Assembly (NCBI GenBank): GCA_001447805.1
Contig: CP013099.1
Span: 3,588,235 to 3,642,500, forward strand
Direction: 5' to 3'
Length of the DNA stretch: 54,266 nucleotides
Source: Candidatus Tenderia electrophaga
GTDB lineage: Bacteria; Pseudomonadota; Gammaproteobacteria; Tenderiales; Tenderiaceae
Part shown: piece after piece, positions 9,533-48,523 of the stretch
Layout of the letters: each line of letters starts with the position of its first letter
Numbering within the stretch: position 1 is the stretch's first letter
Program-made: the position numbers and the translations under genes
The notes under the pieces: generated by a model
Seen by the model: only the letters and a program-made list of their open reading frames with translations
Databases searched by the model: none
What the model was told of the DNA's origin: nothing

Positions 9533-10354
9533 ATGAGATGGAAGAGATCCTGCCTGCTGGGGGGTATGTCGCTGCTGCTGTTTTCGGCGACGAGCCAGGC
9601 GGGTATTTTTAATACCAAGCATAATCTGGGCAGTACGGGTCTCAATGCGGCCAGTACCTATAGCGGCACGCGTGAAATTTGTGTTTTCTGTCATACCCCA
9701 CACGGGGCCAGCGGCGAGGCGGCGGCGCCTATTTGGAATCGCAACCTCGATCCCACCGGTTTTGCCACCTATGATCAGATGGGCACCACCACCCTGGATG
9801 CCGGTGTCGAGCCGGTGGGTTCGGTGTCGCTGGCGTGTCTCTCCTGCCATGACGGCACCCAGGCCATGGATGCCGTGTTGAACGAACCCGGCTCCGGGCG
9901 TGACGTGCCGGGATTTTCGCGCGGGCTGTGGAGCGGCCAGGCGGCGCCGGTGGAAGGCCGTATCGGCCCGCCGGATGTGGTGACCAATCTGGGCAAGGAT
10001 CTGACCAACGATCATCCCATCGGCATTCAATATGCCGGTGGTGGTTACTCCCTGAGTAACCCGGCCGGCCCCGGCTATGACAAGGATTTCCATCCCGCCC
10101 GTTCCGAGATTATGGGCACCAGCCGCGTCTGGTGGGTGGATTCCATCGCCCCCATGCCCGGCGGCACCGGCACCTTCGAGCGCACCGATATGAAGCTCTA
10201 TACCCGGGTGGCGACGCGCGGTGCCTATGCCGGTGAGCCTCAGCCGTATGTGGAATGTGCGTCCTGCCATGATCCGCATGTCGATTACAATCCGACGTTC
10301 CTTCGTATCGATCCCGTGGGTAGCCAGGTCTGCCTGACTTGTCATAACAAATAG
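9533..10354 (+). CDS. Tetrahaem c-type cytochrome (doubled CxxCH family)
   Basis: A 273-residue exported protein with signal peptide (MRWKRSCLLGGMSLLLF..., cleavage after SQA). It has four haem motifs: CVFCH, CLSCH, CASCH and a C-terminal CLTCH. Conserved context includes TKHNL, FCHTPH, PIWNR, SCHDGTQA, DLTNDHP and SCHDPH, as in cytochromes annotated with a doubled CxxCH motif. Five extra histidines can supply distal ligands, so bis-His haems are feasible. It heads the conduit cluster and is followed 15 nt later by a prolyl isomerase gene. A role as surface or filament-forming cytochrome is conjecture. Related proteins in the window are the pentahaem at 46387 and the N-terminal part of the 11-haem at 19271. 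Confidence 0.88.
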   Translation: MRWKRSCLLGGMSLLLFSATSQAGIFNTKHNLGSTGLNAASTYSGTREICVFCHTPHGASGEAAAPIWNRNLDPTGFATYDQMGTTTLDAGVEPVGSVSLACLSCHDGTQAMDAVLNEPGSGRDVPGFSRGLWSGQAAPVEGRIGPPDVVTNLGKDLTNDHPIGIQYAGGGYSLSNPAGPGYDKDFHPARSEIMGTSRVWWVDSIAPMPGGTGTFERTDMKLYTRVATRGAYAGEPQPYVECASCHDPHVDYNPTFLRIDPVGSQVCLTCHNK

Positions 10355-10369
10355 CGCGGATGATGACGC

Positions 10370-11380
10370 ATGGGCCGTTGTAGGTTGAGGCTGGGAGGGG
10401 CGGTTTGCAGTGTGTTGCTGGTGCTGCTGTCGGGCGGCGCTTGGGCTCAGTCGCAGGATGATGTGATCGCCCGTGTCAACGGTGCGGATGTGGTGACGCG
10501 GGCCGAGCTGGACACGGCGGTTTATATGACCGCCCGGCAACGCTTTTATCACGGCCGTATGGGCGAGCAGCGGCTGCAGGCCTTGCGCGCCGAAGTGCTG
10601 GGCCAGTTGATCGACAGGCGACTGTTGCTCGAGGAGGCGCGGGCGCGAAATATCAAGCGCGCCGCTGAGGTGGAGGCGCGTCTCTTGCGCCGGCTGCGAC
10701 GCGGCTACAATGTGCAGGCGATGCCGGCCGATCACCGTGCGGAGATCGAGACAGAGTTGCGCCGTCGCGCCGCCGAACAGGCCTTGCTGGAGACGTTTGA
10801 GGCCGCAGTCAGGTCGGTCGGAACACCAACGGATCAGGATTTGGAGCTGTTTTATCGGCAAAATCTTGATAAATTTACTACGCCACCAAGATTGCGGCTG
10901 TCGGTGATCTTGCTAAAGGTCACGCCGTCCGCGCCGGTCCAGGCTTGGCGGGCTGCCGAGGAGGAGGCGATGCAGTTGCGCGCGAAGATTGAGACCGGCG
11001 CAGAATTCGCTGAGCTGGCGCGCCTGCATTCGGGCGACGCCTCGGCCGAAGCGGGGGGCGATCTGGGGTTCGTGCATGAGGGGATGTTGTCTCGCGAGGC
11101 GCAACAGGCAGTCGATGATCTGGCCGTGGGGGCGGTATCGGCGCCGGTGGTGTTGTTGCAGGGAGTGGCCTTGTTTCGTATCGAGCAGCGTCTGGAGGCC
11201 AAGGTCAATCCGCTGGCACAGGTGGCGGGGCGCGCCCAGGGCTTATGGCAGCGCGCACGGGCCGATGAGGTTTGGGAGGCGTTATTGCAGTCGCTGCGTG
11301 CCGAGGCGGATATAGAGATAACGAATAGTGACATAACAGCGACAATGATTTGGGCGCAAAAGGCGGATGTTGTCCAGTAA
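10370..11380 (+). CDS. PpiC/SurA-type periplasmic peptidyl-prolyl cis-trans isomerase
   Basis: A 336-residue exported protein: signal peptide to about AWA, a SurA-N-like helical region (DDVIARVNGADVVTRAELD... LIDRRLLLEEARARNI), then one parvulin rotamase domain at about residues 165-270. The rotamase domain is recognisable from GAEFAELARLHSGDASAEAGGDLGFV and the following hydrophobic block. It lies between the tetrahaem cytochrome and the beta-barrel gene with short gaps (15 and 33 nt). Prolyl isomerases of this type commonly accompany multihaem cytochrome and porin clusters, so a dedicated folding role for barrel or cytochromes is a reasonable inference. General SurA activity is not excluded. 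Confidence 0.87.
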   Translation: MGRCRLRLGGAVCSVLLVLLSGGAWAQSQDDVIARVNGADVVTRAELDTAVYMTARQRFYHGRMGEQRLQALRAEVLGQLIDRRLLLEEARARNIKRAAEVEARLLRRLRRGYNVQAMPADHRAEIETELRRRAAEQALLETFEAAVRSVGTPTDQDLELFYRQNLDKFTTPPRLRLSVILLKVTPSAPVQAWRAAEEEAMQLRAKIETGAEFAELARLHSGDASAEAGGDLGFVHEGMLSREAQQAVDDLAVGAVSAPVVLLQGVALFRIEQRLEAKVNPLAQVAGRAQGLWQRARADEVWEALLQSLRAEADIEITNSDITATMIWAQKADVVQ

Positions 11381-11413
11381 TAACAATAAATATAAGTATG
11401 GGGTGCCTGGACG

Positions 11414-13255
11414 GTGTGTAGGATAAGCCGCCGTCGGGGTGTGGCGCTGTGCGTGGCCGCGTGCTGCGGCTTGGTGGTCGTGGTAACGCCGGAGTTGTCC
11501 CTGGCGGCCCTGATCGGGCCGGTGGAATCGTCCGGTTATCTCGCCTATTATTACCGCTCCTTGAGCGAGGATGGCGGACCGGAAAACACCAGCCATCAAC
11601 TGGGCGGCACGGTGAACGCGTCGACCTTTTTCGGCGAGCCCTGGCTGGCCACCTCTCATATGTCATTGAGTCTGACGCAGGACTCTTCGGAAACATCGAA
11701 TACAGGCACTCAAGCCAGCACCGATTCCCAGCTGATTACCGGCGATTTCGGCCTGAATGTCCTGCCCCAAAGCCGCACCCCCTTCACCCTGCAGCTGCAG
11801 GTGACCGACAGCCGGGTCGACTCGGAAGGCACGGGCTTTATTCCCATTACCTTTCTCGGTCAGGAATACTCGACCATGTATCTGGGGTTGCGCCAGTCCT
11901 ATTTGACCGACAACGGCGGGCGTTATCTGGCCAATTACGATTATCGTACCTGGGAGTCAAACAGAAGCGGCGAATATGAGGATACTACGCTGGGTTTCGA
12001 GGCCGACCTGCGGGCGCCGCGACATCGTCTGTACGGACGCGCCAGCTTGACCAATAATGAGCATTCCATCGCCGATCGTCAGAATGAAACCCTGCTGCTG
12101 GATATGAGCCACTTTTATTACCCGGTGCGCCATTTTCGGCTCGACAGCAAGGCCAGCTACTATGATTACGACCGGTCATTTCTGGATCCGAATGCCTCCG
12201 ATACACGGCTGACCAATTTGAATATCGCTCAGGTATCCAGTAACGCCTTCTGGCGTCCCACCAATTACCCGCTCAGCGTTACCGCCGGGGTGCGGGTCTA
12301 TGCCATGGATGGCAGCTCCGGCTCGGTGTCCGGCAACGAGGTGCAGAACGTGGCAATGAATGCAGGCCTGTTCTACCACGCCAATCAGAATTTGCGTTTC
12401 GATGCCAGCTTTACCTCGCTGTGGGGCGAAATCAGCGGTGTACAGGATGATGTGCATACTCAGCATGTCGGCTTCTTGTATCAGACCGATTGGATGGAAG
12501 TGGCCGAGTTTATGTATCAGGCCTATCTGGATGGTGATGTCGGGCATCGCGTCGATGTGGATAGCGATGTCACGGATTGGTCCATGACGGCGGGTCATGG
12601 TCTGACTCGCACATGGTGGCCGGCGGAGCGTACTTCGAGTACCTCCCTGCGCATGAATTTGAATCAGGCGCTGGGGTACAGTGCGGCCTCGGGGGATGTG
12701 GCGCTTGATTCCGGTACCGGCGTTTCGGTGGATCACTCCATCACCCTGGCGTTTAGTCAGCGCGCCTGGGGCGGTAACTCATTGGCGCAGATTACCGCCG
12801 CCGACACGCGCACCTATTCCGAGCTCGAAGACTCGCTCGGCGCCACCACCGAAGTCGACAGCGAGCAACAGCTCGTCAATCTGCAGCTGAGTCGGGATCA
12901 GGACTTAGGCCGGAGGAGCTCGATTACCGGTGATATCTCGCTCCAGTACGTGCGTGTCAGGGACGAAACCGCCAGCCCCGGCAGTTCGGTGGCTATCGAC
13001 GAATTTGATACAACCACCTCCACGGGCCGCTTGATGTTCCAGCATTATCAGCTGCTTGGGCTGCCGCGCTTGCAGTTTGTCTCGGATTACAGGGTGTCCA
13101 AGATATCTACAGAAGGCGCCATTGATCGTGAAGACTGGGAAAACCGGCTCGCTTATATGATCGGAAAACTAGAAACAAGTGTCAGTTATCGATTGACTGA
13201 GACTGACAGTCGCAATTATGATTTGCTATACTTCCGGCTCATGCGCCGCTTCTGA
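11414..13255 (+). CDS. Large outer-membrane beta-barrel protein, candidate porin of a porin-cytochrome conduit
   Basis: A 613-residue protein with an N-terminal signal peptide (start MCRISRRRGVALC..., cleavage near LAA), then a long run of amphipathic beta-strands with polar turns, rich in Ser, Thr, Tyr and Asp, closing with LLYFRLMRRF, a terminal Phe. There are no haem motifs. The length allows about 26 strands, in the size range of MtrB/PioB-type barrels that sheath multihaem cytochromes across the outer membrane. I see no clear sequence match to MtrB itself, so homology is not claimed. Start is GTG at 11414, 33 nt after the isomerase gene. Neighbouring genes encode five cytochromes. Confidence 0.8.
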   Translation: MCRISRRRGVALCVAACCGLVVVVTPELSLAALIGPVESSGYLAYYYRSLSEDGGPENTSHQLGGTVNASTFFGEPWLATSHMSLSLTQDSSETSNTGTQASTDSQLITGDFGLNVLPQSRTPFTLQLQVTDSRVDSEGTGFIPITFLGQEYSTMYLGLRQSYLTDNGGRYLANYDYRTWESNRSGEYEDTTLGFEADLRAPRHRLYGRASLTNNEHSIADRQNETLLLDMSHFYYPVRHFRLDSKASYYDYDRSFLDPNASDTRLTNLNIAQVSSNAFWRPTNYPLSVTAGVRVYAMDGSSGSVSGNEVQNVAMNAGLFYHANQNLRFDASFTSLWGEISGVQDDVHTQHVGFLYQTDWMEVAEFMYQAYLDGDVGHRVDVDSDVTDWSMTAGHGLTRTWWPAERTSSTSLRMNLNQALGYSAASGDVALDSGTGVSVDHSITLAFSQRAWGGNSLAQITAADTRTYSELEDSLGATTEVDSEQQLVNLQLSRDQDLGRRSSITGDISLQYVRVRDETASPGSSVAIDEFDTTTSTGRLMFQHYQLLGLPRLQFVSDYRVSKISTEGAIDREDWENRLAYMIGKLETSVSYRLTETDSRNYDLLYFRLMRRF

Positions 13256-13328
13256 TGCGTGAGCCAAGGGTTTAGGGTTTAAAACAATAATATTATTAAA
13301 ATATTTTAGCTTGAGGAGAACTTTCGCT

Positions 13329-13751
13329 ATGTCACGTGTGACCAAGCATAGTAAGTGGAGGTATGTTCTACTCGGGGCGATTACGTGGCTAGCCGCGTTT
13401 AGCTTGCCTCAGTCGGTACATGCTGAATATGCAGATGTGGTAATCAACAACTACGCCGATGCGGCCGGTATCCGTCCAGTGGTGTTTCCCCATTGGTTCC
13501 ACCGTATTCGTTTCCGTTGCAAGGTCTGCCATGCCGACCTGGGTTTCCAGTTCAAGGCCGGTGGTAACAAGATCACCATGGCCAAGATCATCGACGGCAA
13601 ATTCTGCGGCGCCTGCCACAATGGTGAAATTGCCTGGTCAGTTGAGAACTGCGCCTTGTGTCATTCGGGTATTCCCGGCACGCCCACCCATTTTCACGGC
13701 AGTACGGTACAGCGCCTTGTCGCGCCTGCCTACAAACCGGTTGAACAATAG
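13329..13751 (+). CDS. Trihaem c7-like periplasmic cytochrome
   Basis: A 140-residue protein with signal peptide (cleavage after VHA) and three haem motifs, CKVCH, CGACH and CALCH, in about 65 residues. The pattern FPHWFHRIRFRCKVCH, GGNKITMAKI, GKFCGACH is that of c7/c3-type small cytochromes with bis-His haems. GAGGAG lies 10 nt before the ATG at 13329; an ORF extension to 13311 would cover this site. The 73-nt gap upstream is AT-rich with a 12-bp palindrome (AATAATATTATT, 13286-13297), so an internal promoter is possible. It is likely a soluble electron carrier between inner membrane and the barrel-bound cytochrome. Confidence 0.88.
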   Translation: MSRVTKHSKWRYVLLGAITWLAAFSLPQSVHAEYADVVINNYADAAGIRPVVFPHWFHRIRFRCKVCHADLGFQFKAGGNKITMAKIIDGKFCGACHNGEIAWSVENCALCHSGIPGTPTHFHGSTVQRLVAPAYKPVEQ

Positions 13752-13765
13752 AGGGGGGCGGTGTG

Positions 13766-14503
13766 ATGAAATTACGTAGCAAGAGTCTATTTCTTGGTTT
13801 TGCCATGTCCCCGGCGGTTTCGGGTCCCGCCTGTTCGCAGGGCTATGTGGAGATCCAGTCCGGCGGCGTTGATGATATGCCCCTGGATTACGCGCCCGAG
13901 TATCAGCCGGTGAACGAGGTCGCTCCGCCGGAGAACGAAGTGATCCGCGTGGCTCAGGTTTCAGGTGCCAATGAGTTCAATCGCAACCTTAAGAAAGACA
14001 AAATGAAAAACGCGCCGCCCCCCGAGGACGGTATCCACGATCCCGATAACGAAGGTACCTTCGTATTGCAGCCGCCTCTGGAGGCATACGAAGGCTTGCC
14101 GCCCAGTGAATTCGGCAACTATGTCGACTGGGTGAAGGCGATCGACGAGGAAAAGATCAATCCCCGCTGGGACCGCGTCGACTCAAGCGAAGAGCCCTTC
14201 GTGATGGATATGGATATCGTGCGGGAGGTCAAGGCCTCCGTGCCCGATGTGGTGTTCCCGCATCGTCAGCATACTGAATGGTTGTCATGTTCCAATTGCC
14301 ATCCCGCCATCTTCATCCCGCAGAAGGGGGCTAACCAGATCAATATGTCGGCCATCCTGCTGGGGCAGAAGTGCGGGGTGTGTCACGGTAAGGTCTCATT
14401 CCCCATTACGACTAAGTCCTGTAAGAAGTGCCACTCCAAGCCCAAGCCTGCTGATTGGCAGCCGCCGTTGAGTGAGGCAACTCTAAAGAATCCATGGCGA
14501 TAA
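13766..14503 (+). CDS. Trihaem c7-like cytochrome with N-terminal EDGIHDP module
   Basis: A 245-residue exported protein with haem motifs CSNCH, CGVCH and CKKCH in the last third. A long acidic, Pro-rich region precedes them and includes EDGIHDPDN and NYVDWVKAI. The haem part (FPHRQHTEWLSCSNCHP, IFIPQKGAN, CGVCHGKVSFP) closely parallels the protein at 16266, so the two are paralogues. Start is ATG at 13766, 7 nt after GAGGGGGG; a GTG 3 nt earlier is possible. It begins 14 nt after the small trihaem gene, so they are co-transcribed. Haem count and size suggest a periplasmic carrier; the extension could dock to the barrel or a lipoprotein. Confidence 0.87.
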   Translation: MKLRSKSLFLGFAMSPAVSGPACSQGYVEIQSGGVDDMPLDYAPEYQPVNEVAPPENEVIRVAQVSGANEFNRNLKKDKMKNAPPPEDGIHDPDNEGTFVLQPPLEAYEGLPPSEFGNYVDWVKAIDEEKINPRWDRVDSSEEPFVMDMDIVREVKASVPDVVFPHRQHTEWLSCSNCHPAIFIPQKGANQINMSAILLGQKCGVCHGKVSFPITTKSCKKCHSKPKPADWQPPLSEATLKNPWR

Positions 14504-14546
14504 CCGTTATCTCCTAGTGATTTTATCTCGCCAAATGAGATGAGAT

Positions 14547-14566
14547 GGCCGCCTCAGGGCGGCCTT
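14547..14566 (+). terminator. Weak terminator-like or processing hairpin between conduit genes
   Basis: GGCCGCC (14547-14553) and GGCGGCC (14558-14564) form a 7-bp stem with loop TCAG, followed by TTCTCAATCT rather than a T run. It could attenuate transcription or protect the upstream mRNA in the 153-nt gap before the copper lipoprotein gene. Confidence 0.45.
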
Positions 14567-14656
14567 CTCAATCTAAGGGTCGGGATAGCAGGCTGGCGTA
14601 AAGCGACGGAATGTGCCAGCGGTAAGTTGTGAAATTTACTGTTGAAGGTGACGATG

Positions 14657-16162
14657 ATGAAATCTAAGTATACGATTGTGGCGATTGCGGTCACTACGAT
14701 TCTGGCAGGATGCAGCGGAACACCCCCGAAGCAGGGTGAAGTGGCTGCGTCATCAACGGAAGCCACTGGCTCGATGGCTGCTGAAGCTCAAATGCCGGCC
14801 GAAGAAAAAACGAATCAGGTGGCGCCCGCGCCCGAAGTGGCACCCGTAACCCCCGCGCCCACCGCACCGGTTGCGGCCGCAGCATCCGAGCCCACTCCGG
14901 CCAAGGAGGAGACGCCAAAGCGTGAGCTCAAGATTCCCACCGACCCCAACACTTTTTTGATTACCGCGGCGCCGAAGACGCGTGAACATCCCTTTCATGG
15001 CCAAGGGCTGGAAACAGGGTTCGAAGTAAATGGCAAGTCCGGTCACGAAGTCGTGGTCACCCGCGGTGAAACATACAAATTCATCGTCGATACGGGTGTC
15101 AAGCATGATTTCTATCTCACCACCAATGCTGCCGGCTGGGGCGCTGGTACCTATACCGACGGTGTCGAAGGTCAGTTCATCTATCAGGGTGAGGTGACAT
15201 TCACGCCGTCCAATAAAACACCTGACCTGCTTTATTATCAATGTCGCAACCATAAGTATATGGGGGGCAAGATCTACGTTCTTGACAAAGGGGAGGATCT
15301 GGCCAAGGTGAAGGCGGCGGTGGCCGGCAGTGACGCGGCGGAAGCCACAAGCCGGCGTCGTGCCGCCGTTGTGAGTGAGAGCGGGGTCAAGCAGAAGCTG
15401 AGTTATGCCCAGATGGTGCTCGGTTCCGGCAGTGCCAAGCGGGTGCAGGCGAGCGGCAACACAAACGCCATCGCCATGCTGAATGATGCGCGCAGTCAGA
15501 TCGATGCCGCCAATGCGTCGCTGGATGGCGGCGACTTGCAAACGGCGATGGATCAGGTCAATGAGGGTCTGCGCCTGCTGACGGCGGCATCCCGTGAAAT
15601 TACCAGCGAGAGTGAAATGGCCGGGGTTAATTACCAGGCCCGTTACGACGAGTTGGCTGGCTCGCTCAAGACCTATGAAGGCTCTTACAAGCGCAACATC
15701 GATCGCGCCGCCAAGATGGGTGAGCCGGTCAAATCCAAGCTGGACGAAGCGGAATACAAGCGCTTGGTCGATCAAGGGCATGCCTTGGCAGATAAGAATG
15801 ATTATGCTCAGGCCGCTAAATCCTTAGAGAAGGCTCAAAATATGATCACGGCAGTATTGACCGATATGCTGCATGCTCAGACTGTCACGTATGACAAGAA
15901 ATTCGAGACGCCCAAGGAAGAGTACGAGTATGAACTGGCGCGGCTGGAGAACTATGAAGAGCTGGTGCCGCTTGCCATCGAGCAAAAGCAACCGTCCCAA
16001 CGCGCGCTCGAGTTGATAGACAGTTTTGTGCAGAAGGCCGCCAAGATCAAATCCGAAGGGCGGGACGTTGCCGCCAAGGGCGATTACAAGATGGCGATCA
16101 TGGCCCTGCAAGCCGCTACCTCGAATCTGCAGCGTGCCTTGCGCATGGCCGGGGTGAACTAG
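14657..16162 (+). CDS. Lipoprotein with cupredoxin domain and helical repeats
   Basis: A 501-residue lipoprotein (lipobox ILAGC, Cys19) with a Pro/Ala-rich linker to about residue 90, a cupredoxin-like beta domain at about 95-210 and a helical C-terminal half. Candidate type 1 copper ligands are His150 (VKHDFYL) and the trio Cys196, His199, Met202 (YYQCRNHKYMGG), in the standard C-x2-H-x2-M pattern. The C-terminal half contains at least three related helical hairpins, for example GGDLQTAMDQVNEGLRLL, KNDYAQAAKSLEKAQNMI and KGDYKMAIMALQAATSNL. AAGGTG lies 6 nt before the ATG at 14657; the ATG at 14654 is an alternative. It probably acts as a membrane-anchored electron carrier or copper sensor in the conduit. 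Confidence 0.8.
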   Translation: MKSKYTIVAIAVTTILAGCSGTPPKQGEVAASSTEATGSMAAEAQMPAEEKTNQVAPAPEVAPVTPAPTAPVAAAASEPTPAKEETPKRELKIPTDPNTFLITAAPKTREHPFHGQGLETGFEVNGKSGHEVVVTRGETYKFIVDTGVKHDFYLTTNAAGWGAGTYTDGVEGQFIYQGEVTFTPSNKTPDLLYYQCRNHKYMGGKIYVLDKGEDLAKVKAAVAGSDAAEATSRRRAAVVSESGVKQKLSYAQMVLGSGSAKRVQASGNTNAIAMLNDARSQIDAANASLDGGDLQTAMDQVNEGLRLLTAASREITSESEMAGVNYQARYDELAGSLKTYEGSYKRNIDRAAKMGEPVKSKLDEAEYKRLVDQGHALADKNDYAQAAKSLEKAQNMITAVLTDMLHAQTVTYDKKFETPKEEYEYELARLENYEELVPLAIEQKQPSQRALELIDSFVQKAAKIKSEGRDVAAKGDYKMAIMALQAATSNLQRALRMAGVN

Positions 16163-16202
16163 CCTGTTGGCGGAATGTCCAAAAATTAGTGTATAGTGCG
16201 GA

Positions 16203-16230
16203 CGACTGCCATCGGTTTCGATGGCAGTCG
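16203..16230 (+). promoter_or_regulatory. 12-bp perfect hairpin in the intercistronic gap
   Basis: CGACTGCCATCG (16203-16214) and CGATGGCAGTCG (16219-16230) form a perfect 12-bp stem with a GTTT loop. It is followed by ATCTATTTC, not a proper T run. It buries an in-frame ATG at 16221, supporting the downstream start at 16266. A role in mRNA processing or partial termination is likely. Confidence 0.6.
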
Positions 16231-16265
16231 ATCTATTTCGGAGCCCAATTGTAAGATCGGTCGCT

Positions 16266-16865
16266 ATGCTGCGTGCTAAACGTTACAAAACCTTTGCCAT
16301 TGTTTTGGCCGCTTTTTTTTTGGCCATGTTGTTGCCGCGTCTGGCCTATGTCCAGGAAGATAAGTTCCAGGGTGATTTCTGGAATGAAGGCGAACATTTT
16401 CAGCTCGATAGCGACGTTGTACCTGTGTCTGAAGACGGCATCCATGACCCGACCAATGACGCAGTGAAGGTTTTGCAAGCGCCGGTCGAGGCGATGGAGA
16501 ATTTTCCGCGCGATAATTCCGGTGTCATCGATTGGGTGAAAGTGTTGCGTCAAGGCCTGATTGCGCCTCGAAAGGGGCTTTACGGCGATGAGGAGATGCA
16601 TGCAGTCGATTTCGATGTGATCTTTAAGAATACCGGCTCCATGCCGTTTGTGCGTTTTCCTCACCGCCCGCATACCGAATGGCTTACCTGTAAAAACTGC
16701 CATCCCAAAATCTTTCTACCGCAAAAGGGCGGCAATCCCGTGACCATGTCCGGGATCATGCAAGGTAAGTATTGTGGCGTCTGTCATGGTAAAGTTGCCT
16801 TTCCTCCAACCAAGAATTGTGGGCGATGCCATTCCGTATCTCGAGACACCGTCGGCTTAAGATAA
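16266..16865 (+). CDS. Trihaem c7-like cytochrome, paralogue of the 13766 protein
   Basis: A 199-residue protein with a signal peptide or uncleaved anchor (MLRAKRYKTFAIVLAAFFLA...), an EDGIHDPTN module and VIDWVKVL segment, then haem motifs CKNCH, CGVCH and CGRCH. FPHRPHTEWLTCKNCHP, LPQKGGN and CGVCHGKVAFP match the 13766 protein closely. I prefer ATG 16266 because the in-frame ATG at 16221 is inside a hairpin and would place 15 residues ahead of the signal peptide. Its end overlaps the next gene by 40 nt. It is one of two diverged copies that flank the copper lipoprotein. Confidence 0.87.
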   Translation: MLRAKRYKTFAIVLAAFFLAMLLPRLAYVQEDKFQGDFWNEGEHFQLDSDVVPVSEDGIHDPTNDAVKVLQAPVEAMENFPRDNSGVIDWVKVLRQGLIAPRKGLYGDEEMHAVDFDVIFKNTGSMPFVRFPHRPHTEWLTCKNCHPKIFLPQKGGNPVTMSGIMQGKYCGVCHGKVAFPPTKNCGRCHSVSRDTVGLR

Positions 16866-18202
16866 TTGCTTGTCTCTTGGGTGCGGCGCAGCTTATCGGA
16901 TGCGCCACTACCGAGCAGACTGCTACCGCCCCTGGGCTCGAGACCGACCAGGCGGCCAGCGAACTTGCCGAGTTGTTCGAGGGGATGGGGGACGAACCGG
17001 CGTCGCAGGACCAGCAGGCAGCGGAATCAGCCCCTGCCGCGCCCATTTCAGAACAGCAGCCGAAGGATGTGATCGAAGAGGCCATCGACGAATCCGTCGA
17101 CCCCTTGGATCAAATCGCCGCCTCCGCCCCCCAGCCCGTTCTTCCCACTCCCCAAGGCGCCGCCAATATTCAGGTGTTTGATTGGCGGGTGATCGGTAGC
17201 GCCCCGGTCGGCAATTTTTTTACCGGTGTCGCGCACCATGATTTTATCCGCCCGGTGGCGATCGCCGTGCAAAGCGAATACCTCTATGTCGTCGATGACG
17301 GTGCGGATATTCTCTATCGTTTCGACCTCGCCTCGAGGCGGCTCGAGGCCTTGCTCGACTTAAAGGCCGAGATGAAAGGGGAGGTTGCCGATGTCTATGT
17401 GGATAAGGATTTTTCGTTTTATCTGACCGATACCGAAGCGGGTCGGGTGGTCCACTATGATCGCCACGGGCGTGTGCTGCAGGTGTTTCGCGACCATTTC
17501 AACCTGGTCAGGCCGGTGGCGGTGACGCGTCTGGAAAACGGCGATGTCGTGATTGCAGACGGTCATTATGATCACCTGCTGCAATTCAATAGCATGGGTA
17601 AATTGGTCGCCGCCCATGGTGGCCGTGGTACCGGAGTGGCGGAATTCATCAATATCATGACCATGGCCGAGGGGCCCGATGGTTACTACGTCGGCGCCCG
17701 TGTCGGGCGGCGTCTGCAGGTTCTCGGTCGTGACGGCAATTATCTCTATGCCTTCGAGGAAGGGGCGGTGGTATTTCCCGCCGCCATCGCGGTGGATCGC
17801 AACAACCGCAGCTATGTGGCGGACTACATGGATAACACCATCAAGGTATTCGATCGCGGCAGTTTGATTGGCACTATCGGGCGTTTCGGCACCGGTGCCG
17901 GTCAATTCAAACGGATTACCGATTTGTGGTTGGACGGTAATCGGCTCTATATCGTCGACAGCCTCAATCAACGCATCCAAGTGGCGCAGTTGGCGCCCAA
18001 TGCCGCGCCCGTTCCCGGGGCAATGTTCGACCCCGAGACCGAGCCATTGCAGGAATCCGTCCCGGAGACACAAGCCCCGCCGTCGAGCGGCTCGGTGGAC
18101 GAAATGAGGGAAGAGCCTGTGCCTGGCCCGCCAAGCGATTCCGTCCCCCAAGCAACAGAGCAATCCGCCGCGGATAGCCCTCCCGACAGCAGCGGCCAAT
18201 GA
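16826..18202 (+). CDS. NHL-repeat beta-propeller lipoprotein (first of a pair)
   Basis: A 458-residue lipoprotein (lipobox LIGC, Cys26) with an acidic Gln/Ala/Pro-rich linker to about residue 110. A six-bladed NHL-type propeller follows, with repeats such as IRPVAIAVQSEYLYVVDDG, FPAAIAVDRNNRSYVADYM and DLWLDGNRLYIVDSLNQRI. The tail is rich in Pro, Ser and Glu. ATG 16826 is chosen over TTG 16817; both overlap the preceding cytochrome gene. It overlaps the next NHL gene by 4 nt (ATGA). NHL proteins recur in multihaem cytochrome clusters, probably as periplasmic scaffolds. No haem or catalytic motif is present. Confidence 0.87.
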   Translation: MPFRISRHRRLKIIACLLGAAQLIGCATTEQTATAPGLETDQAASELAELFEGMGDEPASQDQQAAESAPAAPISEQQPKDVIEEAIDESVDPLDQIAASAPQPVLPTPQGAANIQVFDWRVIGSAPVGNFFTGVAHHDFIRPVAIAVQSEYLYVVDDGADILYRFDLASRRLEALLDLKAEMKGEVADVYVDKDFSFYLTDTEAGRVVHYDRHGRVLQVFRDHFNLVRPVAVTRLENGDVVIADGHYDHLLQFNSMGKLVAAHGGRGTGVAEFINIMTMAEGPDGYYVGARVGRRLQVLGRDGNYLYAFEEGAVVFPAAIAVDRNNRSYVADYMDNTIKVFDRGSLIGTIGRFGTGAGQFKRITDLWLDGNRLYIVDSLNQRIQVAQLAPNAAPVPGAMFDPETEPLQESVPETQAPPSSGSVDEMREEPVPGPPSDSVPQATEQSAADSPPDSSGQ

Positions 18203-19329
18203 TCATGCCGCGAGGTTTGTTGGCGGCGCTTTGCTGTCTCTCTGTGCTGTCCCTTGTGTCCGGCTGTGCCCGTCTTCCCACCGTATTTGAGTATCGTTCC
18301 GTCGAGTCGGGCGAGTTCGAGCGCGTATGGCCCGACGCGCCGGAGACGGCTCGCTATCGCTATGTCGGCGAGCTCACGGGCGAGGACAATTTTCCCCGCC
18401 CCGGTGCACAGACCCTCAATGTCGGTACGCGCTTTCTGCGCTGGCTGGTGGGTCTGGTCGGTCACGGTGAGCAGCCGATCATCCTGCAGCGGCCGCAAGC
18501 AGTGGCCAGCAATTCCCAGGGGCGGATTTTTGTCAGCGATGTCAGCCGCCAGGCGGTGTATGTGTTCGATACCGCGCAGGCTGAACTGTTGGTATGGGAA
18601 TACGCCGCCGCCGACGTGCGCTTCGAGCTGCCCATCGGCCTGGCGCCGACGGCCGATGGCGGGGTGTGGGTCGCCGACGCCTCCTTGGGCGTGGTAACCC
18701 GTCTCGGGGCGGACGGCGAGCCGCTGGATTATTTCGGTCTTGATCAGCTTCAGCATCCCACCGGTCTGGCCTGGGACGCGTCGCGCCAGCGTCTTTACGT
18801 TGCCGACCGGGGTGCCAACAACATCAAGGTCTACGACGCGGCCGGCGGCTTGCAGTTCGAGTTCAGTGAGTTCGGCGAGGCCGACGGCCAGCTCAACGGT
18901 CCGACCTACCTGTTCTGGCGTGATGATCAGCTCTATGTCACCGATACCCTGAATTCGCGCATCCAGGTGTTTTCGCCGCAGGGGGAATACCTGTCCGGCT
19001 TCGGGCGCCGCGGGCTTTATCTGGGCGACCTGCCACGTCCCAAGGGCGTGGCGGTGAGTCAAGACGGGAAAATCTATGTGGTAGAATCGTATTACGACTA
19101 TTTGTTAATATTCAACCGTAAAGGTGAGTTATTATTGCCGATTGGCGGCACAGGCCATCAGGTGGGGCAGTTCTATTTGCCCGCAGGGGTATGGGTTGAT
19201 AACAACTACGTTTATGTCGCGGACACCTTCAACGGCCGCGTAATGATATTTGAATATCTGGGAGAGGGAGATGCGTCGGACGTTGCAGGTGACAGCAGCT
19301 CTGATATTGACGACGCTGCTGGGGGTTAG
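18199..19329 (+). CDS. NHL-repeat beta-propeller lipoprotein (second of a pair)
   Basis: A 376-residue lipoprotein (lipobox LVSGC, Cys23) made almost wholly of an NHL propeller: LQRPQAVASNSQGRIFVSD, FELPIGLAPTADGGVWVAD, LQHPTGLAWDASRQRLYVAD, LNGPTYLFWRDDQLYVTD and two further blades. Start ATG 18199 overlaps the upstream stop in ATGA. Its 3' end overlaps the start of the 11-haem cytochrome gene by 59 nt, so the three genes are tightly coupled. It lacks the acidic linker and tail of its neighbour. It is probably a partner or scaffold for the large cytochrome. Confidence 0.88.
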   Translation: MIMPRGLLAALCCLSVLSLVSGCARLPTVFEYRSVESGEFERVWPDAPETARYRYVGELTGEDNFPRPGAQTLNVGTRFLRWLVGLVGHGEQPIILQRPQAVASNSQGRIFVSDVSRQAVYVFDTAQAELLVWEYAAADVRFELPIGLAPTADGGVWVADASLGVVTRLGADGEPLDYFGLDQLQHPTGLAWDASRQRLYVADRGANNIKVYDAAGGLQFEFSEFGEADGQLNGPTYLFWRDDQLYVTDTLNSRIQVFSPQGEYLSGFGRRGLYLGDLPRPKGVAVSQDGKIYVVESYYDYLLIFNRKGELLLPIGGTGHQVGQFYLPAGVWVDNNYVYVADTFNGRVMIFEYLGEGDASDVAGDSSSDIDDAAGG

Positions 19330-21988
19330 CGCCCAAGCCGAAATAATATCGGATATACGCAATACCAAACATAACTTCTCTGCCACTGTTGTCCCCGCCC
19401 TGCCGGACGGCGCCAGCCGCACCGTGCAGGCGCGCTCGGAGTCGCAGATCTGCGCCTTCTGTCATACCCCCCACAAGGCGACCAAACAGGGGCAGGCGCC
19501 GATCTGGAATCGCAAGCTCTCCAACGCCACCTACAGCCCCTATACCAGCACCTCGATCAATGCCGTCGATCTGGGCCAGCCCAACACCAAATCCAAACTG
19601 TGTCTTTCCTGCCATGACGGCACCCTGGCCATCGGCTCGGTCAACGTCCTCAATCGGGAGGAAGACCCCCAAATTAATATGACGGGTGTCGCCGCTGACG
19701 GCACCATGCCGGATGGTCTGGGCGAGCGTACCGGTTTTACCCGCCGCTTGGGCACCGATCTGACCAACGACCATCCTATTTCCTTCACTTACGACGCCTC
19801 CCAAGCCGTGCGTGACGGTGAGCTGCGCGACCCCAATGCGGTGACCTTTTTGGGTGAGCGTAATCGCCGTATCAGTCACAACAAGCCCACGTTGCCGCTG
19901 GAAGACGGCCAGATGGAGTGTGTCTCCTGCCACGATCCCCATGTACGTAGCACCTCAGGCGAGAACATCAAGTTTCTGCGCGTCAACCGTTTTCAGCAGG
20001 CCACACCGGTGGAGGGGACGTTCGACCAGGCCAATGACATCATCTGTCTGGCCTGTCACGAAAAGGCCGGCTGGGCTGATTCGGCGCACGCCAACATGGC
20101 CGTCGCCGATGAACGCTACACCGATGCCGCCGCCGAAGTGCGCGAGTTTCCGCAGGATATGCAGGTCTGGCAGGCCGCCTGTCTCAACTGCCATGATCCG
20201 CACACGGTGCAGGGCTCACGCCGCCTGCTGCGCGAAGGTACCGACGACGCCGGCCAGCTGGTGAGTGCCGCCAATGACACCATTCGCATCAAGCAGGGCG
20301 GCAATCCGGCTATCGAGGAGACTTGTTACGCCTGTCACTCCACTGACGGTAATGTGTTGCAGGGGCAGCCCAACAAGGGTGTGTTCGAGGTGCCGGACAT
20401 CAAGACCGACTTCACCACCATGCGCATCCACATGCCGATCGCCAGCGCGGACCAGCCGGCCGGCGAGGAACGCCACGCCATCGGCACGCATCCGTCGCCC
20501 CAGAATGGCAAGGACTTTATGGAGTCGCAGCAGCGTCTCGGCAAGGGCGATCTGACCAACCGCCACGCCGAATGTACCGATTGCCATAATCCGCACCGGG
20601 TGGTCAAGAATCGTCGTTTCAATGACGATCCCAAGATCCCGGACAACGAGGGGACTCATGACCACACCCTGACCCAGCTCGCCGGCACCCCCGAGGGTAT
20701 GCATACCAATATCGCTTCGGGTGTATTGCGCGGCGCCTGGGGGGTGGAGCCGGGCGGCTGGCCCACCACTGAATTCACCAGCGTGCCGGTGTCCTTCGAC
20801 GTCAAGCGCGGCGACGCCGTGGTGGGCGGCAGTACCGACGTCAGCGCGCCCTATGTCACCCGTGAATACCAGATTTGTATGAAATGTCATTCCAACTACG
20901 GCTATGACACGCCGCCGCCGCTGGGCACCAATCATGCCGGCGGCACGCCGCCGGGGACCAATGCCTTGTTTAATTACACCAATCAAGGCATGGAGTATCA
21001 GTCGCCCGACGACCACAAGGGTGAAGGGACTCCGGCGACCCCGACCGGCGCCCTCTCGGGCAGTGTCGGCGAATGCGCCGAGGTCAATACGGGCACCCTG
21101 AACACGGCGGCCGATCCCAATTACGACACCTTCATCAAGCGTGCCGGTTATCGGGATTCCTTCGGCAACTGCGTCAACTATGTCACCGACAACCATCGTT
21201 CCTGGCACCCCGTGCTCAAAGAGACCGGGCGCACCCCCGCGGTGCGCAACGCCAATGCGGATGACTGGCACGAGCCCTTCAATGCCGCCGTCGGCGTGCA
21301 GACCATGTACTGCACCGACTGCCACGGCTCCGATACCGCCCAGGGCACCGTCGTGCCGCGCGGGCTGCAGCCCCACGGCAACGTCTGGGGCCCCCATGGT
21401 TCGGACAACGAGTTCTTGCTGAAGGGCAGTTGGAGCGATCAAACCGGGCAGAACACACCGACCGACGGCCTGTGCTTCAAGTGTCACAACTACAATTTCT
21501 ACGGCCGGGAGTTTCCCACCGGCGTTATCAATGCCAACCAAACCCAGAGCAGTGGTTTTAGCCGTGATCCGGCCTTGGGCGTGGCGGCCTGTCTTTACGT
21601 GCCCCAGGTCAATCTGCACACCGGCCATGCCCAGGAACGCCAGGTGGCCAACTTCCGTTGTAGCTACTGCCACGTGTCCATCCCGCACGGCTGGAAGAAT
21701 AAGAATTTCCTTGCCAATCTCAACGACGTCGGCCCCGAAGTCGGCCTGCCGACGCCGGGCAACCAGGTGCGCAACAATCAGACCAGCCGTTACTACCGCG
21801 GTCCGTATTACAACGGCGCCGTGCTGAAGGTGGTGCAGTTCCGCCAAAGCGGTGAATGGATACACAACAGTTGCGGTTCCGCCGGCAATCCGGGCAACGG
21901 GCGGGTCGGCGGCAACAACAATTTCGGCAACATTCCCTGGATGACGGATCAGGGGTCAGGCAGTGAGGCCTGTAACCTGCTGCCATGA
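19271..21988 (+). CDS. Undecahaem (11 CxxCH) c-type cytochrome, probable surface component of the conduit
   Basis: A 905-residue protein with signal peptide (MRRTLQVTAALILTTLLG..., cleavage after AQA) and eleven CxxCH motifs: CAFCH, CLSCH, CVSCH, CLACH, CLNCH, CYACH, CTDCH, CMKCH, CTDCH, CFKCH and CSYCH. The first third repeats the pattern of the tetrahaem protein (TKHNF, FCHTPH, PIWNR, SCHDGTLA, DLTNDHP, SCHDPH). The rest is unlike anything I can name. There is no lipobox. ATG 19271 has GGAGAGGGAG just upstream; the ORF-level start at 19250 would precede this site. It overlaps the NHL gene before it and resB after it (ATGA). Size and haem number suit an outer-membrane or surface electron-transfer protein. 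Confidence 0.9.
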   Translation: MRRTLQVTAALILTTLLGVSAQAEIISDIRNTKHNFSATVVPALPDGASRTVQARSESQICAFCHTPHKATKQGQAPIWNRKLSNATYSPYTSTSINAVDLGQPNTKSKLCLSCHDGTLAIGSVNVLNREEDPQINMTGVAADGTMPDGLGERTGFTRRLGTDLTNDHPISFTYDASQAVRDGELRDPNAVTFLGERNRRISHNKPTLPLEDGQMECVSCHDPHVRSTSGENIKFLRVNRFQQATPVEGTFDQANDIICLACHEKAGWADSAHANMAVADERYTDAAAEVREFPQDMQVWQAACLNCHDPHTVQGSRRLLREGTDDAGQLVSAANDTIRIKQGGNPAIEETCYACHSTDGNVLQGQPNKGVFEVPDIKTDFTTMRIHMPIASADQPAGEERHAIGTHPSPQNGKDFMESQQRLGKGDLTNRHAECTDCHNPHRVVKNRRFNDDPKIPDNEGTHDHTLTQLAGTPEGMHTNIASGVLRGAWGVEPGGWPTTEFTSVPVSFDVKRGDAVVGGSTDVSAPYVTREYQICMKCHSNYGYDTPPPLGTNHAGGTPPGTNALFNYTNQGMEYQSPDDHKGEGTPATPTGALSGSVGECAEVNTGTLNTAADPNYDTFIKRAGYRDSFGNCVNYVTDNHRSWHPVLKETGRTPAVRNANADDWHEPFNAAVGVQTMYCTDCHGSDTAQGTVVPRGLQPHGNVWGPHGSDNEFLLKGSWSDQTGQNTPTDGLCFKCHNYNFYGREFPTGVINANQTQSSGFSRDPALGVAACLYVPQVNLHTGHAQERQVANFRCSYCHVSIPHGWKNKNFLANLNDVGPEVGLPTPGNQVRNNQTSRYYRGPYYNGAVLKVVQFRQSGEWIHNSCGSAGNPGNGRVGGNNNFGNIPWMTDQGSGSEACNLLP

Positions 21989-23013
21989 TGTTCGGACTGC
22001 GCAGGTTGGCCTCGACCCGGCTGACCTTGGTGGGAATGGCCCTGCTCGCGGTCGGGGCCGGCTTGAGCTATGACAATCCCGATGACGTCTCGGCCTGGGT
22101 GCTCACCGCGCCGTTGCTGTTGCTGGCTCTGAATCTGCTCGCCGCCATTATTACCCAGCCCGGCATCAACCGCCGCCCCGGGCTGTTGATGTTCCACATC
22201 GGGTTGCTTTCTATTTGTATCCTGGCGGCGCTGGGTCGGCTGACCCATTTCGAATCCCGTGTCGAGATCAGCCAGGACAGCGCCTTCGATCCGCGCGCCA
22301 TGCAGGAGATCAGTCAGGGACCCTGGCATGCAGATGAACTGGACAAACTCCGCTTTGTCCAACAGGGCTATACCGTGGAGTATCGGCCGGGCCTGGTGCG
22401 CGGCAAGACGCGCAGCCAGGTGTTGGTCCCCGACGGGCGCAGCGGCTGGGAGCCGCGGGTGGTCGGCGACGACACGCCCCTGATTCTGGACGGTTATCGT
22501 TTCTACACTACCTTTAACAAGGGGTTTGCCGCGGTGCTGAGCTGGATTCCACGGCAGGGCGAGGCGGTCACCGGCACCATACACATGCCGTCGTATCCGC
22601 TGTTCGAATACAAGCAGGCCAACAGCTGGATACCGCCGGGCAGTGACGCGCAGATAAAGTTCTGGCTGCGCCTCGACACCGGTTATGACCTGGAGTCGGA
22701 ATGGTTGTTGGACCACCAGCACACCGAGGGCGTGCTGGTGGTCAACGATGGCGACCGGCGTGTCGAGTTGCAGGCCGGGCAGGGCATCGATCTGCCGGGC
22801 GGCCACCTGCGCTATGAGGCGCTGAGCACCTGGATGGGTTACAAGATCTTCTATGATCCGACCCTGAAGTGGCTGTTCATCGCCGCCGTGTGGACGGTGT
22901 TCGGGCTGAGTCTGCACTACTGGAGCAAGTTCCGCCATCAGCCCCTGGCCGAATCCGGCGCCAAGCAAGCACAGCAGGACAGTATTATGAACTACAAGGT
23001 GACAAACTCATGA
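21985..23013 (+). CDS. resB: ResB/Ccs1-like cytochrome c biogenesis protein (System II)
   Basis: A 342-residue membrane protein with three N-terminal hydrophobic helices, a large periplasmic domain (about residues 85-285) and a final helix before the C-terminus (WLFIAAVWTVFGLSLHYW). This is a compact ResB-like arrangement, shorter than Bacillus ResB but like ResB-domain proteins paired with CcsA in multihaem-rich bacteria. ResB and CcsA together form the System II haem exporter/synthetase that attaches haem to apocytochromes. Its start overlaps the stop of the 11-haem gene (ATGA) and its stop overlaps ccsA (ATGA), so it is in the conduit operon. Confidence 0.82.
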   Translation: MMFGLRRLASTRLTLVGMALLAVGAGLSYDNPDDVSAWVLTAPLLLLALNLLAAIITQPGINRRPGLLMFHIGLLSICILAALGRLTHFESRVEISQDSAFDPRAMQEISQGPWHADELDKLRFVQQGYTVEYRPGLVRGKTRSQVLVPDGRSGWEPRVVGDDTPLILDGYRFYTTFNKGFAAVLSWIPRQGEAVTGTIHMPSYPLFEYKQANSWIPPGSDAQIKFWLRLDTGYDLESEWLLDHQHTEGVLVVNDGDRRVELQAGQGIDLPGGHLRYEALSTWMGYKIFYDPTLKWLFIAAVWTVFGLSLHYWSKFRHQPLAESGAKQAQQDSIMNYKVTNS

Positions 23014-23867
23014 CTGCCATACCGATCGAAGTCCCCTGGATGTGGGCGGGCCTGGTGGCCTATGCCCTGGCCACCTTGCTGGCCTTCAAGAGCGTCTGGC
23101 ACTTGGGCGCCGAAGGGCCGGGCGCCGCCATGACCTTGCCCAGCCGCAGCACCGAGCGCTGGATTCTGATATGCATCGCCAGCGGCGTGGCGCTGCTGGC
23201 CGCCGCCCTGGCGCTACGCTGGATGCGTCTCGGTCACGGCCCCTTCGTCAATCTGTACGAATTGTTAATAAGTCAGCTGTTCAGTCTCGGCCTGATCTAT
23301 GCGCTGGTCTACTGGCGCGTGCCCAAGCTGCGCGCCAGCGCGGTCGTAGTGTTGCCGTTGATCTGGATTCTGGGCACCTGGGTCCTGTTCCTGGAGCCTG
23401 AAGACAGCCTGTTCCCGCCCACCTATTCCAATAACTGGCTGTGGGCCCATGTGGGCTTCGGCAAGGTGTTTCTCTCTTTTTGCCTGGTGGCGGCCGGCCT
23501 GGCCGGCGTCATTTTGCTGCGCGCCATTCCCCGCTTCGCGCGCAGCTTCTCACACATGAGCGATGCCGCCTTGGACAACCTGGCCTGGCGCTTCATGATG
23601 CTGGCCCTGATCTTCGACAGCCTGATGCTCATCGCCGGCGCGGTCTGGGCCCAGGACGCCTGGGGCCGCTTCTGGCAATGGGATGCCCTGGAGACCTCCT
23701 CCTTCATGACCTGGCTGTCCATCGCCGCGGGCATCCATGCGCGCCTCAGCTACAACATCCCGGTGCGCATCGGGGCAGTGGTCATTCTGGCCATCTTCGG
23801 CCTGGCCTTCACCACCTATTTCGGCGCGCCCTTTTACAGTGAAGCGGCCCACAAGGGAGTGATCTGA
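23010..23867 (+). CDS. ccsA: CcsA-type cytochrome c synthetase subunit (System II)
   Basis: A 285-residue protein with about eight transmembrane segments and the Trp-rich WWD motif WGRFWQWDALETSSFMTWL that binds haem in the periplasmic face of CcsA/CcmC/CcmF proteins. Histidines that could ligate haem lie in WAHVGFGK and GIHARLSYN. ATG 23010 overlaps the resB stop in ATGA; an open frame from 22869 lies inside resB and is not the start. This is the catalytic partner of ResB. The window also holds a complete System I operon, so the two systems coexist. Confidence 0.9.
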   Translation: MTAIPIEVPWMWAGLVAYALATLLAFKSVWHLGAEGPGAAMTLPSRSTERWILICIASGVALLAAALALRWMRLGHGPFVNLYELLISQLFSLGLIYALVYWRVPKLRASAVVVLPLIWILGTWVLFLEPEDSLFPPTYSNNWLWAHVGFGKVFLSFCLVAAGLAGVILLRAIPRFARSFSHMSDAALDNLAWRFMMLALIFDSLMLIAGAVWAQDAWGRFWQWDALETSSFMTWLSIAAGIHARLSYNIPVRIGAVVILAIFGLAFTTYFGAPFYSEAAHKGVI

Positions 23868-24542
23868 GTGCACGGCCTGATGGAAAAGACCACCACCTTC
23901 ACCGCCCTGGCGCTGGTGCTGATGATGCTGGCATTGCTGTCCGGCTTCGCCAATCGCGCCCAGTTCGCCTATCAGCCGCCGAGGCTCGAAAGCGAACCCC
24001 CGATCGATGCCCAGGCCGATCCCCAGGGCCACGCCCGTCAATACCGTGCGCGCCTGCTCGATGAGCGTTTCCAGCAGGCGGTGGCCATGTTGCACGCCAA
24101 ACGCTATGACTTCGCCATCACCGCTCTGCACCGCGTCATCGAGCTGGCCCCCGAGATGCCCGAGGCATATGTCAACATGGGCTACGCCCTGATCGGCAAA
24201 CAGGATTACCAGGCCGCGGCCGACTTTTTCAGCGCCGCCATCGAACTCAAGCCCTACCAGGCCAACGCCTACTGGGGCTTGGCGGTGTCGCTGGAACAGC
24301 TCGAGGATCTGGCCGGGGCCATGGGCGCCATGCGCACCTTTATCCATCTCTCGCCGCCCAACGATCCCTTCCTGCGCAAGGCCCGTTCGGCCTTGTGGGA
24401 GTGGGAGTCCACCCTCAAGCGCGGCCCCTTGCCCGAGGCGGAACAGGAATGGATTGAACGACGCAGCGCCGAATGGGACGAGCGCAATAGCCTGGAGGCC
24501 GATATGCCCGCGGCGCGAGAGCGCGCCATCGAGGTGAATTAA
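23868..24542 (+). CDS. Membrane-anchored TPR protein following resB-ccsA
   Basis: A 224-residue protein with one N-terminal helix (residues ~10-28), then two or three tetratricopeptide repeats (YDFAITALHRVIELAPEMPEAYVNMGYALIG, YQAAADFFSAAIELKPYQANAYWGLA split by a few residues) and a charged C-terminus. GTG 23868 directly follows the ccsA stop, with GGGAG about 10 nt upstream; ATG 23880 is an alternative. TPR proteins such as CcmI/CycH present apocytochromes to the haem lyase, so a chaperone role for System II substrates is a sensible guess. It is the last gene of the conduit transcript; I see no clear terminator in 24543-24807. Confidence 0.75.
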   Translation: MHGLMEKTTTFTALALVLMMLALLSGFANRAQFAYQPPRLESEPPIDAQADPQGHARQYRARLLDERFQQAVAMLHAKRYDFAITALHRVIELAPEMPEAYVNMGYALIGKQDYQAAADFFSAAIELKPYQANAYWGLAVSLEQLEDLAGAMGAMRTFIHLSPPNDPFLRKARSALWEWESTLKRGPLPEAEQEWIERRSAEWDERNSLEADMPAARERAIEVN

Positions 24543-33177: not shown

Positions 33178-33180
33178 GCG

Positions 33181-33849: not shown

Positions 33850-33870
33850 TTAAAAGACATAACAAGAAGT

Positions 33871-34629: not shown

Positions 34630-34786
34630 GTGGTTTGCGATGGGCGGGCACGGTACTTACATCTGGGGGTCGTTCGCCGTGACGGCCCTGTTCATGATCG
34701 GCGAGGCGCTGCTGGTGGTGCGGCGGCGACGAACTTTGGTGCAACGGCTGGGTCGTATGATTCGTATGAATTCCGAGGTGAAGTAA
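34622..34786 (+). CDS. ccmD: Small haem exporter protein CcmD
   Basis: A 54-residue protein starting MAEWFAMGGHGTYIWGSF, with one transmembrane helix (AVTALFMIGEALLVV) and a basic cytoplasmic tail. This is the standard form of CcmD, which stabilises the CcmABC-CcmE complex. Its ATG is inside the end of ccmC and its TAA is immediately followed by the ccmE ATG. It is shorter than most automated ORF thresholds and easily missed. Confidence 0.93.
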   Translation: MAEWFAMGGHGTYIWGSFAVTALFMIGEALLVVRRRRTLVQRLGRMIRMNSEVK

Positions 34787-48488: not shown

Positions 48489-48523
48489 TTGACGCGCAGC
48501 GGGCCGAGGCCATCCGCTCCACG

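What the first reader, a model, noticed from the sequence alone, without database searches (positions are those of the whole stretch)
9533..24542. A 15-kb porin-cytochrome-type conduit locus with its own maturation genes
The sequence shows 24 CxxCH haems in five cytochromes (4+3+3+3+11), a 613-residue beta-barrel, a prolyl isomerase, a copper-site lipoprotein, two NHL lipoproteins, ResB, CcsA and a TPR protein, all on one strand with mostly overlapping or short junctions from 16266 on. Established: MtrCAB, PioAB and Geobacter porin-cytochrome clusters combine a barrel with multihaem cytochromes. Inference: this is a distinct conduit type, because the barrel has no evident match to MtrB, no decahaem MtrA-like protein is present, and a cupredoxin is built in. 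No inner-membrane quinol enzyme is encoded here.
Basis: partly seen in the sequence, partly recalled or inferred. Interest (0 to 1): 0.9.

Follow-up and report, generated by a model that had tools for sequence, protein, structure and literature searches.

The report
Known Uet electron-uptake gene cluster
This is the already described Uet cluster, which electricity-eating Tenderia bacteria are thought to use to move electrons across their outer membrane; new here is that two of its cytochromes are related to OmcE, a protein that Geobacter assembles into electron-conducting filaments.

Summary
In detail: five cytochromes with 4+3+3+3+11 CxxCH motifs, a barrel, a prolyl isomerase, a cupredoxin lipoprotein, two NHL lipoproteins, ResB, CcsA and a TPR protein, all on one strand. 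The reading as a "distinct conduit type" is right, but not new. It is the uetABCDEFGHIJ (undecahaem electron transfer) cluster named in 2022 for the Tenderiales; this genome belongs to that order, probably Ca. Tenderia itself. Synteny: strong UetC-type barrels occur in 20 of 185 genomes of the class, exactly those with full-length UetJ; UetA lies next to the barrel in 20/20. The barrel models as 28 strands with no plug domain. Its best PDB match is MtrB, barely above unrelated barrels, and no MtrB/PioB family model hits it. The cupredoxin is not universal (motif in 40/43 long, 0/27 short UetF homologues). UetJ is sometimes duplicated, and in one genome it is absent from the operon. What I did not find published, though the naming paper could not be read: UetA is a full-length relative of the filament cytochrome OmcE (E 5e-34), and UetJ begins with the same tetrahaem module; all eight haem-ligand histidines are invariant. 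Filament formation is untested.

The parts
9533..10354 (+). UetA: tetrahaem c-type cytochrome, full-length relative of OmcE
   Evidence: 4 CxxCH; profile hit to 7tfs E 4.9e-34 and to 9yuq E 4.6e-34; 8 ligand His invariant in 23/23
10370..11380 (+). UetB: PPIC-type/SurA-like prolyl isomerase
   Evidence: Pfam Rotamase E 2.9e-15
11414..13255 (+). UetC: outer-membrane beta-barrel, 28 predicted strands, no plug domain
   Evidence: AlphaFold2 pLDDT 89.9; no Pfam family for any of 23 members at a meaningful E; best PDB match MtrB 6r2q_B
13329..13751 (+). UetD: trihaem c7-type cytochrome
   Evidence: TIGR04257 E 4e-19
13763..14503 (+). UetE: trihaem c7-type cytochrome
   Evidence: TIGR04257 E 2.8e-17
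14654..16162 (+). UetF: lipoprotein with a cupredoxin-like domain and a helical tail
   Evidence: PF25489 E 1e-6; lipobox; CxxHxxM in 40/43 long homologues
16266..16865 (+). UetG: trihaem c7-type cytochrome
   Evidence: TIGR04257 E 1.5e-19
16826..18202 (+). UetH: NHL-propeller lipoprotein
   Evidence: PF01436 E 1.3e-8; lipobox by reading (LIGC)
18199..19329 (+). UetI: NHL-propeller lipoprotein
   Evidence: PF01436 E 4.8e-25; lipobox
19271..21988 (+). UetJ: undecahaem cytochrome; N-terminal ~230 residues are an OmcE-like tetrahaem module
   Evidence: 11 CxxCH; 7tfs E 3.4e-31 over profile positions 13-226; ligands invariant in 26/26
21985..23013 (+). ResB-like cytochrome c maturation protein (short, 342 aa)
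   Evidence: PF05140 E 4.3e-12
23010..23867 (+). CcsA-like cytochrome c assembly protein
   Evidence: PF01578 E 8.4e-21
23868..24542 (+). TPR protein, weakly CcmH/CycH-TPR-like
   Evidence: PF07719 E 4.2e-13; PF23914 E 2.8e-5, below its cut-off

Best explanation
This is the Uet trans-outer-membrane electron conduit of a Tenderiales bacterium. Shown here: a conserved operon of a large, plug-less 28-strand barrel (UetC), three trihaem c7-type cytochromes (UetD, E, G), an OmcE-like tetrahaem cytochrome (UetA), an undecahaem cytochrome that begins with an OmcE-like module (UetJ), two NHL lipoproteins, a prolyl isomerase and ResB/CcsA/TPR maturation genes. Inferred: UetC sits in the outer membrane and is filled by a cytochrome, because a barrel that wide with no plug domain would otherwise be an open hole. 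UetA and UetJ lie on the outer side and contact the electron donor (cathode or mineral). Electrons cross the UetC-held haem chain, pass to UetD/E/G in the periplasm and on to the respiratory chain. UetB helps fold the barrel or cytochromes; ResB/CcsA attach haem. Which cytochrome fills the barrel is unresolved; UetA, or a trihaem protein, is favoured over UetJ because UetJ varies in copy number and is missing from one otherwise complete operon. The direction (uptake) rests on published work on Tenderia, not on sequence.
For: Published match: UetA tetrahaem, UetB PPIase, UetC porin, UetDEG trihaem, UetHI NHL, UetJ undecahaem (PMC10734462); cluster named uetABCDEFGHIJ and called conserved in Tenderiales (PMC12575090). 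Published expression in Ca. T. electrophaga groups an undecahaem cytochrome and three trihaem paralogues with the respiratory complexes (PMC5371394). Gene order A-B-C-D-E-F-G-H-I-J-resB-ccsA-tpr holds in most complete loci, inside and outside Tenderiales. UetC found in all 11 searchable genomes of the order. Strong UetC in 20/185 genomes of the class, the same 20 that hold full-length UetJ; UetA next to UetC in 20/20. Barrel model with no plug.
Against: No complex could be modelled: UetJ folded without haems gave pLDDT 33, and no multimer tool was available. The MtrB match (Z 17.2, rmsd 11.3 A, 11% identity) is only about 1 Z unit above unrelated TonB-dependent receptors, so fold similarity says 'big barrel', not 'conduit family'. 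G087 has the operon without UetJ, and some genomes carry extra orphan UetJ copies. No quinol enzyme is encoded in the operon.
Confidence: 0.78

Rival explanations
1. The UetC barrel is mainly an export and assembly pore for extracellular cytochromes (UetA and UetJ, perhaps as filaments); electrons cross the membrane along the threaded filament or by another route such as Cyc2.
For: UetA is a full-length OmcE relative with every haem ligand conserved; a chaperone-type prolyl isomerase lies between UetA and the barrel in nearly all loci; UetA-UetC adjacency is 20/20 whereas UetJ can be unlinked. A Cyc2 homologue is reported for Ca. T. electrophaga (PMC5371394).
Against: Three trihaem cytochromes in the same operon fit an electron conduit better than a secretion pore; the export route of OmcE itself is not established in the papers read here.
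Confidence: 0.13
2. The cluster is a conduit that runs outward, for respiration of metal oxides, rather than inward for electron uptake.
For: Undecahaem cytochromes are also cited for the manganese reducer Ca. Dechloromonas occultata (PMC13264449); sequence does not fix direction.
Against: Ca. T. electrophaga grows on cathodes, and its undecahaem and trihaem genes cluster in expression with the terminal oxidase and reverse electron transport complexes (PMC5371394); Uet also occurs in iron-oxidizing Gallionella.
Confidence: 0.08
3. UetC is an ordinary substrate porin that happens to neighbour cytochrome genes.
For: No porin-cytochrome family model matches it, and many PDB barrels score close to MtrB.
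Against: Perfect co-occurrence with UetJ in 185 genomes and constant adjacency to UetA and UetD/E; no plug or constriction for substrate selection seen in the model's secondary structure.
Confidence: 0.03

Closest known systems
Uet (undecahaem electron transfer) cluster of Tenderiales, Eddie et al. 2022 mSphere (paper not held; known through PMC10734462 and PMC12575090)
   Same: Same genes A to J, same haem counts and same order; this genome lies in the same order, very probably the same genus.
   Different: Nothing essential; resB, ccsA and tpr directly follow UetJ and are as conserved, but are not in the named set A-J.
OmcE cytochrome filament of Geobacter sulfurreducens (PDB 7tfs)
   Same: UetA aligns over its whole length, all four CxxCH and the four distal histidines conserved; the UetJ N-terminus likewise. 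An OmcE homologue with two NHL genes is reported in Geoalkalibacter (PMC12016550).
   Different: UetA and UetJ each form their own clade apart from OmcE; UetA is longer; polymerization is not shown; UetJ carries seven further haems.
MtrCAB / MtoAB / PioAB
   Same: Barrel plus multihaem cytochromes; MtrB is the top PDB match of UetC.
   Different: No MtrA-like decahaem in the operon, no MtrB_PioB family match, 28 predicted strands.
Compact relative in other Gammaproteobacteria (L055-L058, L065)
   Same: OmcE-like tetrahaem, two NHL proteins, a barrel distantly like UetC and an 11-haem cytochrome.
   Different: 11-haem protein only about 570 aa; extra 8-, 7- and 3-haem cytochromes; no UetD/E/G or UetF detected.

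Membership tests
Uet cluster | Tetrahaem UetA, PPIase UetB, barrel UetC, trihaem UetDEG, NHL UetHI and undecahaem UetJ clustered together | tested here: met
   against the description in PMC10734462
Uet cluster | Presence in Tenderiales | tested here: met
   all 11 genomes of the window's order hold UetC; nearest named UetJ is Candidatus Tenderia sp. BWSM_60 at 90%
MtrCAB/PioAB/MtoAB | MtrB/PioB-family barrel (PF11854) | tested here: not met
   no hit in the genome; no Pfam hit to it in 23 UetC members
MtrCAB/PioAB/MtoAB | Decahaem MtrA-like periplasmic cytochrome in the operon | tested here: not met
   haem counts 4, 3, 3, 3, 11; TIGR03508 only 48 bits against a cut-off of 192
MtrB fold | Same barrel architecture as MtrB | tested here: inconclusive
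   Z 17.2, rmsd 11.3 A, other barrels Z about 16
OmcE-type filament cytochrome | Full-length homology with four haems | tested here: met
   UetA profile E 4.9e-34 to 7tfs over both ends of the protein
OmcE-type filament cytochrome | Complete set of haem ligands, including the histidine donated to the neighbouring subunit | tested here: met
   OmcE His 31, 58, 149, 208 and the four CxxCH His invariant in 23 UetA and 26 UetJ; the ninth OmcE His is not conserved. Which one bridges subunits was not determined
OmcE-type filament cytochrome | Polymerizes into extracellular filaments | not testable with these tools
   needs cryo-EM or a multimer prediction with haem
Geobacter porin-cytochrome (OmbB/OmaB/OmcB, ExtABCD) | Family-specific barrel and cytochromes | not tested
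   no family model for these barrels was run by name

The most novel reading that the evidence does not exclude
Uet is a cytochrome-filament system: UetA polymerizes like OmcE, UetJ caps or roots the filament through its OmcE-like module, and the UetC barrel anchors the filament or lets it through the outer membrane. That would make it a nanowire machine for electron uptake in aerobic autotrophs.
Probability: 0.3. Interest if true: 0.82.

Novelty: already known. Interest (0 to 1): 0.5.

Why it matters
How electroautotrophs take electrons from a cathode is open, and how cytochrome filaments are joined to the outer membrane is also open. A conserved operon that puts an OmcE-type cytochrome beside a dedicated barrel, and repeats its tetrahaem module at the start of the undecahaem partner, gives a concrete and testable link between the two questions.

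Tried and rejected
UetJ structure prediction failed (pLDDT 33), so no fold search was run on it. The barrel fold search cannot place UetC in the MtrB family. MtrB_PioB search of the genome: nothing. Plasmid search with UetA: nothing. 'Distinct conduit because of the cupredoxin' rejected: 27 short UetF homologues lack the copper motif. The naming paper (PMC9599434), the OmcE structure paper (PMC9357133) and a DOI tried for the Dechloromonas occultata paper were not held, so whether the OmcE link was noted there is unknown. What 9yuq is beyond 'putative multiheme cytochrome c' could not be learned. The order of OmcE, UetA and UetJ in the tree is unsure because OmcE and 9yuq have long branches.

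Full report
OBSERVATION. The window lies at 3,588,235-3,642,500 of a 3.76-Mb, two-contig genome. Between 9533 and 24542 the + strand carries thirteen genes in close succession. CxxCH motifs number 4, 3, 3, 3 and 11, that is 24, with no variant motifs. Pfam and NCBIfam give a PPIC-type isomerase, three c7-type trihaem proteins (TIGR04257, all above cut-off), NHL propellers, doubled-CXXCH cytochromes, ResB, a cytochrome c assembly protein and a TPR protein. The 613-aa protein matches no family, but AlphaFold2 on 23 relatives gives a confident barrel (pLDDT 89.9). I count 28 strands in it, no plug domain and short connections throughout.

WHAT IT IS. The combination is the Uet cluster. PMC10734462 describes it as an undecahaem cytochrome UetJ, tetrahaem UetA, trihaem UetDEG, prolyl isomerase UetB, NHL UetHI and porin UetC, first found in cathode-oxidizing Tenderiales. 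PMC12575090 calls it the conserved cluster uetABCDEFGHIJ of that order. The naming paper itself was not held. All 11 genomes of the window's order that could be searched have the barrel, and the closest named UetJ is from Candidatus Tenderia sp. at 90% identity. PMC5371394 names an undecahaem cytochrome Tel_16545 in Ca. T. electrophaga; the position of our UetJ near 96% of the genome fits that locus number, but identity with that strain is an inference.

CONSERVATION. In 185 genomes of the class, full-length UetJ and strong UetC occur in the same 20. The seven remaining UetJ matches are weaker: five were followed up and belong to a compact relative (below), two (G097, G109) were not. Two weak UetC matches fall inside the compact relative. 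UetA sits immediately beside UetB-UetC, or UetC alone where UetB is missing, in 20 of 20. Gene order A to J, then resB-ccsA-tpr, holds in most complete loci. Exceptions are informative. UetJ is tandemly duplicated in some loci and orphaned in others. In G087 the operon runs A-I-resB-ccsA with no UetJ, which lies on other contigs. A branch that includes beta- and alphaproteobacteria replaces the cupredoxin UetF by short proteins without the copper motif. So UetA, the barrel and the trihaem proteins form the constant core; UetJ is variable and the cupredoxin optional.

RELATION TO OmcE. A profile of UetA hits only two solved proteins with meaning: OmcE of Geobacter (7tfs, E 4.9e-34) and 9yuq (E 4.6e-34), each over both ends of the protein. 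A UetJ profile hits the same two over its first 226 positions. PMC12954529 identifies 7tfs as the OmcE filament and states that one interfacial haem takes a histidine from the next subunit. Aligned with OmcE, all four CxxCH histidines and the four other shared histidines (OmcE 31, 58, 149, 208) are invariant in 23 UetA, 26 UetJ and five compact-type tetrahaem proteins; the only other OmcE histidine (118) is not. The OmcE letters used there are those printed, from residue 8 on. Since four bis-histidine haems need four distal ligands, the ligand given to the neighbour should be among those four (inference). UetA, UetJ and OmcE form separate clades, so UetA is a relative, not a member of the OmcE clade. 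Homology does not show polymerization. I found no statement of this link in the papers I could read; the naming paper was not among them.

MECHANISM. Shown: the parts, their conservation and their families. Inferred: UetC is filled by a cytochrome; outside, UetA and UetJ meet the electron donor; inside, UetD/E/G carry electrons over the periplasm; NHL lipoproteins act as scaffold; UetB, ResB, CcsA and TPR serve folding and haem attachment. Uptake rather than release rests on published physiology. The barrel's best structural match is MtrB (Foldseek E 3.9e-9, Z 17.2) but unrelated receptors score Z about 16, so this supports size and shape only. By the standard barrel formula, 28 strands would give a backbone radius near 26 A (own estimate assuming a shear number of 32), wide enough for a multihaem protein.

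A COMPACT RELATIVE. In five genomes a tetrahaem OmcE-like gene, NHL, a barrel of about 630-720 aa, NHL and an 11-haem protein of about 570 aa lie in a row, in most with 8- and 7-haem cytochromes after them. In one (L056) the 11-haem ORF extends to 905 aa, probably from an upstream start. The barrel profile matches UetC at hhalign probability 86% over the first 300 residues, on only five sequences. This suggests that 'OmcE-like cytochrome + barrel + NHL + 11-haem protein' is a wider theme, tentatively.

VERDICT. The locus is known and its conduit role is likely though unproven. The OmcE relationship is the part worth following.

Noticed in passing
45317-47133 (-): A pentahaem cytochrome that matches the UetA profile (E 2.6e-22), paired with an NHL lipoprotein; it lacks the histidine of the CHTPH motif. 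It may be a second OmcE-like unit.
   Followed up: partly
32557-39528 (+): Reads as a System I ccm operon (CcmA, B, C, E, F, G, H and a TPR protein), so both cytochrome c maturation systems are encoded within 20 kb. Read from translations only.
   Followed up: no
42859-45315 (+): GGDEF-EAL-PAS-HAMP protein with one CxxCH in its N-terminal sensor region, next to two propeller proteins (40474-42836; Reg_prop shown for the first); possibly a haem redox sensor.
   Followed up: no
47262-49453 (+): Two adjacent proteins each with three CxxCH motifs of class I cytochrome c type (for the first), upstream of an argC-like gene at 49489-50517.
   Followed up: no
L160 (G087:C136): Uet operon A-I-resB-ccsA without UetJ, while several UetJ copies lie on other contigs of the same genome.
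   Followed up: yes
L055, L056, L057, L058, L065: Compact Uet-like cluster with an 11-haem cytochrome of about 570 aa and further 8-, 7- and 3-haem cytochromes.
   Followed up: partly
G000:C1:2099256-2099459 (-): A fourth c7-type trihaem protein (TIGR04257, 62.8 bits) outside the window.
   Followed up: no
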